A stretch of DNA of 64,000 nucleotides, taken from assembly GCA_903828785.1 (NCBI GenBank), contig CAIKNP010000009.1, positions 1 through 64,000 on the forward strand, given 5' to 3'. Source of the DNA: an uncultured Actinomycetes bacterium. GTDB taxonomy: Bacteria; Actinomycetota; Acidimicrobiia; Acidimicrobiales; RAAP-2. Shown in pieces: positions 15,155 to 18,565 of this stretch (positions are counted from its first letter, which is position 1; the number at the start of each line of letters is the position of its first letter). Both the position numbers and the translations under genes were made by a program. The notes under the pieces are model-generated. The model did no database searches. It worked only from the letters and a program-made list of their open reading frames with translations, and was not told the DNA's origin.

Positions 15155-16828
<1,674 letters not shown>

Positions 16829-16855
16829 TTAGCAGTCTAGGGGTGAGAGTGCTAA
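16829..16855 (-). promoter_or_regulatory. CIRCE (HrcA operator) upstream of groEL
   Basis: TTAGCAGTC-N9-GAGTGCTAA; one mismatch to TTAGCACTC-N9-GAGTGCTAA. Confidence 0.9.
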
Positions 16856-16860
16856 CCGAG

Positions 16861-17136
16861 TCAGCCGCCGGCGACCGCGGGCACCAGTGACACGGTGGTG
16901 CCGGCGGTGAGTTCCGTGTCCAAACCATTGAGGAAACGCACGTCTTCGTCGGCGACAAAGACGTTGACGAAACGTCGCAAGGATCCCTTGTCGTCGAGAA
17001 CGCGAAAAGCGATACCGGGGTAGGCCGCGTCGACGGCGGCGATGGCCTCCCGCACGGTGCTGGCTTCAACTGGTACTTCGCCGGCGCCGCCCACGAGGAC
17101 GCGCAACTGACTAGGCAAACGGACAATCACACTCAT
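16861..17136 (-). CDS. MoaD/ThiS-family ubiquitin-like sulfur carrier protein
   Basis: 91 aa ending in Gly-Gly (PAVAGG); IVRLPSQLRVLVGGAGEVPVEASTVREAIAAVD...RFVNVFVADEDVRFLNGLDTELTAGTTVSLVPAVAGG. Confidence 0.88.
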   Translation of the reverse strand: MSVIVRLPSQLRVLVGGAGEVPVEASTVREAIAAVDAAYPGIAFRVLDDKGSLRRFVNVFVADEDVRFLNGLDTELTAGTTVSLVPAVAGG

Positions 17137-18383
17137 GAGGCACTCACTAACCGTAGGAAATTAAGGGCCTCCTCGGCATTCGCCAAGGAGGGGGTAATCG
17201 TGGCCGAGACCACGGCGGTGTCAACCACGGCGTCAAGGGTCTTGAGACCGTGGCCCGAAATAATCGCGACAATCGACTTATTCGGGTCGATAGTGCCACG
17301 TCGAATCATCTGGCGCAAGGAGGCGATAGTCACACCGCCGGCGGTTTCGGCGAACACGCCTTCGGTCTGGGCGAGCAAACCGATGCATTCGAGAATTTCT
17401 TCGTCGCTCACCGAGCCACAGTCACCACCCTTGGCCCGTAGGTTGTCGAGAACGTAGGGACCATCGGCCGGATTACCAATCGCCAGCGAACGAGCAATGG
17501 TGTTGGGCTTCTGGGGTGTCACGACCTCGGCGCCTTCGGCGAAGGCGGTGGCGATGGGCGAACAGCCCGTCGCCTGGGCCCCGAAGAGTACGGGGGCGGT
17601 CCCCGAAACGAGACCGAGTTCGATGAACTGATTGAAACCCTTGGCGACTTTGGTGAACTGGCTTCCCGAGGCCAGCGGTACCACGACCTGATCCGGCATC
17701 GTCCACCCCAGCTGCTCACAGATCTCAAAGGCCAAAGTCTTGGAGCCTTCGGCGTAGTAGGGACGGAGATTTACGTTGGCGAAGGCCCAGTCCGGGTGCT
17801 CGGCGACGAGTTCCACGCAGAGACGATTAACGTCGTCGTAGTTACCCTCAACGCCGAGGACCGTTCCCCCGAAGATAGCGGTCATGGCGATCTTGGACTT
17901 TTCAAGATCCGAGGGAATGATGGTCACACTGGGCCAACCGATGAAGGCGGCGTGCGCGGCTACCGAGGTCGCCAGATTTCCCGTCGAGGCGCAGGCGGCA
18001 GTGGTAAAACCCAGTCGCCGAGCGCTCGAGAGTGCGCAAGAAACCACGCGGTCCTTGAAGGAACCAGTGGGGTTTCGAGTGTCGTCCTTGAGCCAGAGTT
18101 CCTTAACGCCGAGGACCTCGGCGAGACGAGTGGCTCGTCGCAGCGGCGTCCAGCCGGCGCCCAGGTCCACGGGCTCGACGCCGGGATCGGGCAAAAGGGC
18201 GGCGTAGCGCCAAATTGAACTCGGGCCGGCTTCAATGCTCGCCCTCGTCACGACGCCCTTGGCCGCCTCGAGGTCGTAGTCAACCTCCAGCGGACCAAAA
18301 CAGAACTCGCAGGAGTACCGTGCCTCGGTGGGATAGGTCGCCCCGCACTCTCGACAGAGAAGACCGGTCGCAAAACTCGCCAT
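17133..18383 (-). CDS. thrC: Threonine synthase (PLP fold type II)
   Basis: N-terminal Cys-rich CRECGATYPTEARYSCEFC; DTRNPTGSFKDRVVSCALS PLP-Lys motif; CASTGNLATSVAAHAA. Confidence 0.9.
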   Translation of the reverse strand: MASFATGLLCRECGATYPTEARYSCEFCFGPLEVDYDLEAAKGVVTRASIEAGPSSIWRYAALLPDPGVEPVDLGAGWTPLRRATRLAEVLGVKELWLKDDTRNPTGSFKDRVVSCALSSARRLGFTTAACASTGNLATSVAAHAAFIGWPSVTIIPSDLEKSKIAMTAIFGGTVLGVEGNYDDVNRLCVELVAEHPDWAFANVNLRPYYAEGSKTLAFEICEQLGWTMPDQVVVPLASGSQFTKVAKGFNQFIELGLVSGTAPVLFGAQATGCSPIATAFAEGAEVVTPQKPNTIARSLAIGNPADGPYVLDNLRAKGGDCGSVSDEEILECIGLLAQTEGVFAETAGGVTIASLRQMIRRGTIDPNKSIVAIISGHGLKTLDAVVDTAVVSATITPSLANAEEALNFLRLVSAS

Positions 18384-18397
18384 ACTGCATTTCCCTT

Positions 18398-18498
18398 TCA
18401 TCGTTCGGGCTTTGGCACCTGGTGTGACAGGAATTCTCCTGGGGATCACACTGGTTGCCGCGACTTCAACGGGCCCGTCCCTCAGTCGCTCTGGATGA
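18398..18498 (-). ncRNA. SAM riboswitch (S-box, SAM-I-like) in the thrC leader
   Basis: Minus strand TCATCCAGAGCGACTGAGGGACGGGCCCGTTGAAGTCGCGGCAACCAGTGTGATCCCCAGGAGAATTCCTGTCACACCAGGTGCCAAAGCCCGAACGATGA: P1 TCATC/GATGA, P2 GCGACT/AGTCGC, GAGGGA..GGCCC..GAAG..CGGCAACC core, P3 GTGTGA/TCACAC. Confidence 0.9.
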
Positions 18499-18565
18499 CA
18501 CTTCTGGCTACAACTATAGCGGGCTTCGATTGGTCGCATTCATTCGCTTCCCCTACATTGGAGTC

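What the first reader, a model, noticed from the sequence alone, without database searches (positions are those of the whole stretch)
16861..18498. SAM riboswitch controlling a threonine synthase-like gene plus a MoaD/ThiS-like sulfur carrier
Seen: an S-box aptamer with P1, P2 and P3 pairings sits directly upstream of thrC. The P1 3' strand (GATGA) abuts the AAAGG Shine-Dalgarno, suggesting translational control. The next gene, overlapping by 4 nt, encodes a 91-aa Gly-Gly-ending MoaD/ThiS protein. Known: S-box RNAs usually control Met/Cys/SAM genes. CysO-CysM in mycobacteria and HcyS-MetY in Wolinella use a protein thiocarboxylate as sulfur donor. Inference: this PLP enzyme may use O-phosphohomoserine plus thiocarboxylated carrier to make homocysteine, or the cell may divert phosphohomoserine according to SAM level. 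I recall groEL/MoaD-like/thrC neighbourhoods in other actinobacteria, so the gene order may be conserved; novelty of the riboswitch link and chemistry is uncertain.
Basis: partly seen in the sequence, partly recalled or inferred. Interest (0 to 1): 0.75.

Follow-up and report, generated by a model that had tools for sequence, protein, structure and literature searches.

The report
SAM-controlled MetM/MetO homocysteine synthesis operon
This is a SAM-sensing RNA switch in front of a threonine-synthase-like enzyme and its sulfur-carrier protein, which together very probably make homocysteine (the precursor of methionine) in a bacterium that lacks the usual enzymes; the same MetM/MetO pathway, with a SAM riboswitch, was described in Streptomyces in 2024.

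Summary
A SAM-I riboswitch (RF00162, 64.2 bits) lies at 18395-18501 (-), directly before a threonine-synthase-like gene. That gene overlaps by 4 nt one for a 91-aa MoaD/ThiS-like protein ending in Gly-Gly.

New support here: the genome (96.5% complete) has no MetX, no member of the MetB/MetY/MetC family and no HcyBio, but has ThrB, a separate ordinary ThrC, MetH, one rhodanese-ThiF activating enzyme and no MoaE. Among 41 genomes of the order, all 24 without MetX carry metM, and all 9 without metM carry MetX. The riboswitch adjoins metM in 30 of 30 testable genomes. One genome lacking metM has the same riboswitch class before metY-metX. Most probable control: translation, by the P1 helix abutting the Shine-Dalgarno.

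Small new points: the aptamer lacks helix P4, and groEL downstream has its own CIRCE operator. Catalysis and SAM response remain untested. Verdict: new member of a known kind.

The parts
18395..18501 (-). SAM-I (S-box) riboswitch aptamer, variant without P4
   Evidence: RF00162 64.2 bits; covariation incl. pseudoknot; constant 12-nt linker in place of P4 in relatives
18393..18398 (-). Shine-Dalgarno AAAGGG abutting the P1 3' strand (GATGA, 18402-18398): proposed expression platform
   Evidence: read from sequence; same layout in relatives, GATGAAAAGGG or GATGAGGAGG; inference for function
17133..18383 (-). metM: threonine-synthase-like PLP enzyme (416 aa), predicted homocysteine synthase, with N-terminal Cys4 motif
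   Evidence: PF00291 241 bits; invariant C10, C13, C25, C28 in 12 homologues; clade apart from the genome's own ThrC, support 100/99
16861..17136 (-). metO: MoaD/ThiS-like sulfur-carrier protein, 91 aa, ends VAGG
   Evidence: PF02597 49.8 bits, SAMP1-like; directly follows metM in relatives
16829..16855 (-). CIRCE (HrcA operator) before groEL, one mismatch: marks groEL as a separately controlled unit
   Evidence: 0 expected by chance; conserved in the genus
15155..16777 (-). groEL, neighbour, probably not part of the SAM-controlled unit
   Evidence: TIGR02348 811.8 bits

Best explanation
The locus is a metM-metO operon under a SAM-I riboswitch. MetO is adenylated and thiocarboxylated at its C-terminal Gly-Gly by the genome's single rhodanese-ThiF enzyme. 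MetM, a PLP enzyme derived from the threonine synthase fold, takes O-phosphohomoserine (made by ThrB), eliminates phosphate and adds sulfur from MetO-COSH, giving homocysteine, which MetH methylates to methionine. When SAM is plentiful the aptamer closes P1, which abuts the Shine-Dalgarno, and translation of metM (and of the 4-nt-overlapping metO) falls. Shown here: RNA match and covariation, gene content, gene order, co-occurrence. Inferred: reaction, sulfur donor, activating enzyme, direction and level of control.
For: SAM-I hit and covariation. No PF01053 member over the cut-off, no MetX match, no HcyBio in a 96.5% complete genome, although ThrB, MetH, a separate ordinary ThrC and one ThiF with rhodanese domain are there. 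No MoaE, so MetO is not needed for molybdopterin. In 41 genomes of the order: 24 of 24 without MetX carry metM; 9 of 9 without metM carry MetX (Fisher p 7e-5, not corrected for kinship). RF00162 adjoins metM in 30 of 30 testable genomes, and in G028, which has no metM, it precedes metY-metX. Among 80 named homologous loci, 41 carry RF00162 and one Gemmatimonadetes locus carries the unrelated SAM-II class upstream. Published precedent: S. albulus MetM with SAM riboswitch and neighbouring metO (PMC12172450, citing doi 10.1128/aem.01247-24). No terminator-like site lies between aptamer and start codon.
Against: No enzyme assay or SAM binding was possible. The primary 2024 paper is not held and no Streptomyces MetM sequence was compared directly. 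Genomes with both metM and metX exist (8 of 41). Micromonosporaceae keep metM and riboswitch without an adjacent metO, so the carrier is not always encoded alongside. A cyanobacterial homologue showed threonine synthase and deaminase activity and no clear homocysteine synthesis (PMC12172450).
Confidence: 0.88

Rival explanations
1. The enzyme is a plain second threonine synthase, and the riboswitch balances threonine against methionine by throttling use of O-phosphohomoserine.
For: TIGR00260 thrC scores 270 bits, above its cut-off; nearest solved structures are threonine synthases.
Against: A separate ordinary ThrC is in the genome and lies in a different, well-supported clade. The NCBIfam model that fits best is below its cut-off (272 of 303). 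Without a homocysteine enzyme the genome would have no de novo route to methionine, although MetH is kept. A SAM-repressed threonine synthase would raise threonine synthesis when SAM is low, the wrong direction for balancing.
Confidence: 0.06
2. The MoaD/ThiS-like protein serves molybdopterin, thiamine or tRNA sulfur transfer and is only a neighbour; MetM uses free sulfide.
For: The family includes MoaD, ThiS and CysO; metO is not adjacent in Micromonosporaceae and some others.
Against: No MoaE in this genome; separate CysO-like and ThiS-like genes exist (C14:13413, C15:49731); the 4-nt overlap with metM is kept in the whole genus and adjacency across several phyla.
Confidence: 0.1
3. Control is by transcription termination rather than translation.
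For: S-box RNAs of Bacillota usually act by termination (own knowledge).
Against: Only 11 nt separate the aptamer match from the start codon in this window, with no terminator-like site; SD abuts P1 in the genus and order. A translational SAM-I riboswitch is documented in Xanthomonas (PMC7270179).
Confidence: 0.07

Closest known systems
MetM/MetO pathway of Streptomyces (Hasebe et al. 2024, doi 10.1128/aem.01247-24; described in PMC12172450)
   Same: Threonine-synthase-like enzyme on O-phosphohomoserine, neighbouring sulfur-carrier gene metO, SAM riboswitch upstream of metM.
   Different: Here in a small Acidimicrobiales-type genome that lacks any other recognised homocysteine enzyme; aptamer lacks P4; groEL with CIRCE downstream. 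Primary paper not held, so details of the Streptomyces riboswitch were not compared.
CysO-CysM-Mec of Mycobacterium (cysteine from O-phosphoserine and protein thiocarboxylate; PMC3227635)
   Same: PLP fold-II enzyme plus Gly-Gly carrier charged by a MoeZ-type enzyme. This genome also holds a JAB-cysO-cysM cluster (L165).
   Different: Makes cysteine, from phosphoserine; CysM-type, not threonine-synthase-type enzyme; no riboswitch at that cluster was found (single RF00162 hit in the genome).
HcyS/MetY of Wolinella succinogenes (from memory)
   Same: Homocysteine from a protein thiocarboxylate.
   Different: Uses a PF01053 enzyme on O-acetylhomoserine; no PF01053 member above cut-off here.
SAM-I and SAM-IV riboswitches (RF00162; SAM-IV structure PMC6890682)
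   Same: P1, P2a/P2b with kink, P3, pseudoknot PK-1 and the SAM core; like SAM-IV it lacks P4.
   Different: Scores as SAM-I; no P5/PK-2 element follows P1, where SAM-IV has one; the sequence after P1 is the SD and start codon.

Membership tests
SAM-I riboswitch (RF00162) | Score above the curated gathering score | tested here: met
   64.2 vs 44.4 bits
SAM-I riboswitch (RF00162) | P1, P2 with internal loop, P3 and L2/J3-4 pseudoknot, with covariation | tested here: met
   pseudoknot pair G-C in 19, C-G in 4 sequences; P2a pair A-U 13, G-C 10
SAM-I riboswitch (RF00162) | P4 helix between J3/4 and P1 | tested here: not met
   Model positions for P4 deleted; constant short linker in Acidimicrobiales copies. 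P4 loss is a structural variation; membership rests on core and score
SAM-I riboswitch (RF00162) | Binds SAM and represses | not testable with these tools
   needs in-line probing or ITC and reporter fusions
MetM (O-phosphohomoserine homocysteine synthase) | Threonine-synthase-fold PLP enzyme in a clade apart from ordinary ThrC | tested here: met
MetM (O-phosphohomoserine homocysteine synthase) | Direct sequence relation to S. albulus MetM | not tested
   No Streptomyces sequence among the 80 best loci; Micromonosporaceae homologues are 54-57% identical
MetM (O-phosphohomoserine homocysteine synthase) | Neighbouring MetO-type carrier with C-terminal Gly-Gly | tested here: met
MetM (O-phosphohomoserine homocysteine synthase) | Replaces MetX and PF01053 enzymes | tested here: met
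   absent here; 24/24 and 9/9 complementarity in the order
MetM (O-phosphohomoserine homocysteine synthase) | Converts O-phosphohomoserine plus MetO-COSH to homocysteine | not testable with these tools
   enzyme assay needed
MoaD (molybdopterin synthase small subunit) | Partner MoaE in the genome | tested here: not met
   no PF02391 match in G000
SAM-IV riboswitch | No P4, but P5/PK-2 element after P1 | tested here: not met
   P4 absent, but only SD and start codon follow P1; best clan match is SAM-I

The most novel reading that the evidence does not exclude
The Acidimicrobiales metM leader is a minimal SAM-I aptamer, without P4 and without the PK-2/P5 that SAM-IV has in exchange, acting directly on an abutting Shine-Dalgarno; and in this genome both cysteine and homocysteine can be made from protein thiocarboxylates (CysO-CysM and MetO-MetM) charged by one shared activating enzyme.
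Probability: 0.5. Interest if true: 0.45.

Novelty: new member of a known kind. Interest (0 to 1): 0.36.

Why it matters
It fills the homocysteine gap for a lineage whose genomes would otherwise be scored as methionine auxotrophs, gives independent comparative support (replacement of metX/metY, riboswitch swap) for a pathway described in 2024, and shows that many genes annotated thrC with an S-box upstream should be re-annotated metM.

Tried and rejected
The primary paper on MetM/MetO could not be read. A sigma-70 consensus promoter was not found upstream, so the transcription start is unknown. GG-ending small ORFs were sought downstream of metM in Micromonosporaceae and not found. The M-box match at 18389-18477 (12.7 bits, far below its threshold of 44) is rejected as chance. 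groEL as part of the SAM-controlled operon was considered and rejected because of the conserved CIRCE operator. G029's 45%-identical hit was not counted as metM: long branch, no riboswitch hit in that genome. Structure prediction was not run: the fold is not in doubt and a model would not settle the sulfur donor.

Full report
What is there. On the minus strand, a SAM-I riboswitch aptamer (RF00162, 64.2 bits, gathering 44.4) spans 18501-18395. It is followed within 11 nt by the ATG (18383-18381) of a 416-aa PLP enzyme of the threonine synthase kind (PF00291, 241 bits; start checked), which overlaps by 4 nt a gene for a 91-aa ThiS/MoaD-like protein ending VAGG. groEL follows, behind a CIRCE operator with one mismatch at 16829-16855 that is kept in most genus relatives, so it is probably a separate, HrcA-controlled unit.

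The RNA. The aptamer keeps P1, P2a/P2b, P3 and the loop-2/J3-4 pseudoknot. On 23 related leaders 96.8% of cells pair, against 30-46% for slid structures; 5 pairs show changes on both sides, including a pseudoknot pair that is G-C in 19 and C-G in 4 sequences. The alignment was made by sequence, not fitted to this structure, but the structure was drawn from the window's own sequence. Helix P4 is missing: the stretch from GGTGC to GATGA is a constant short linker in all Acidimicrobiales copies and in a few Solirubrobacteraceae, whereas Micromonosporaceae and other phyla have a longer, hairpin-sized stretch there. SAM-IV also lacks P4 but gains P5/PK-2 (PMC6890682); here only the Shine-Dalgarno and start codon follow. 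The SD abuts or overlaps the P1 3' strand and no terminator-like site lies between, so translational control is the likeliest mode (inference; a translational SAM-I precedent is PMC7270179).

The genome. The window lies in a 1.56-Mb, 28-contig, 96.5% complete genome. It has no PF01053 member over the cut-off (MetB, MetY, MetC), no MetX match and no HcyBio. It has ThrB, a separate ordinary ThrC (L001: TIGR00260 314 bits), B12-dependent MetH (TIGR02082 1303 bits), and one ThiF protein with a rhodanese domain, about 4.5 kb from metH. Of three ThiS-type proteins, one is MetO, one sits between a JAB protease and a CysM-like enzyme (L165), as in the CysO-CysM-Mec system (PMC3227635), and one is elsewhere. 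There is no MoaE, so MetO is not a molybdopterin synthase subunit.

Relatives. In 41 genomes of the order I scored metM, strong MetX and strong PF01053. All 24 genomes without MetX carry metM; all 9 genomes without metM carry MetX; 8 carry both (Fisher p 7e-5; relatedness not corrected, and some genomes are incomplete). Of 32 metM genomes, two have the upstream region cut off; in the other 30 an RF00162 hit adjoins metM. In G028, which lacks metM, RF00162 instead precedes metY-metX (C181: 7081, 7267, 8602). Beyond the order, 80 named loci from several phyla were fetched: 41 have RF00162 upstream, mostly within 300 nt (three are 0.5-1.2 kb away), and one Gemmatimonadetes locus has SAM-II (RF00521) 170 nt upstream. 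A MetO-like gene lies within 600 nt downstream in 53 of 78 testable loci. The tree separates this clade from the genome's own ThrC with 100/99 support, though some distant rows have long branches.

What it does. The best explanation is the MetM/MetO route: O-phosphohomoserine plus thiocarboxylated MetO gives homocysteine, then MetH makes methionine, with SAM feeding back on metM-metO translation. The reaction was reported for Streptomyces by Hasebe et al. 2024 (doi 10.1128/aem.01247-24). I could not read that paper; PMC12172450 says that it identified MetM as a homocysteine synthase acting on O-phosphohomoserine, that metM of S. albulus has an upstream SAM riboswitch, and that a metO of the sulfur-carrier family is involved. 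That MetO works as a thiocarboxylate is from my memory of its abstract.

Limits. No activity, SAM binding or regulation was measured. Absence of genes rests on profile searches of a draft genome. In 27 genomes of more distant metM carriers, 21 do have PF01053 members, some of which may be degradative or lyases, so strict replacement is shown only within this order. Micromonosporaceae lack an adjacent metO.

Verdict. Observation confirmed; interpretation supported; chemistry and riboswitch link already known, so this is a new member of a known kind, with a P4-less aptamer as a modest structural variant.

Noticed in passing
window 16829-16855: CIRCE operator TTAGCACTC-N9-GACTGCTAA between metO and groEL, kept in the genus; explains the groEL neighbourhood as a separately regulated unit.
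   Followed up: yes
L025, L038; L028, L035, L037 (riboswitch at 1501 of each locus): In relatives, further RF00162 riboswitches directly precede genes for two kinds of small proteins (about 120-155 aa) with no Pfam match above cut-off; SAM-regulated proteins of unknown function.
   Followed up: partly
L049, L054, L056, L062, L066, L068, L070, L074, L075: In 9 of 29 relatives MetO carries one or two residues after Gly-Gly (e.g. GGC, GGCA, GGCC), so it would need trimming before activation, possibly by the JAB protease.
   Followed up: no
L150:2756-2831: A Gemmatimonadetes metM homologue has a SAM-II (RF00521) riboswitch 170 nt upstream: a different SAM riboswitch class at the same gene.
   Followed up: no
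L107, L111, L116, L123, L124, L135, L157, L159: Micromonosporaceae have riboswitch plus metM but no MetO-like gene next to it.
   Followed up: partly
L165:2078-4145 (G000:C14): JAB protease, CysO-like carrier (ends GGAA) and CysM-like enzyme in a row: a mycobacterial-type thiocarboxylate cysteine pathway in the same genome.
   Followed up: partly
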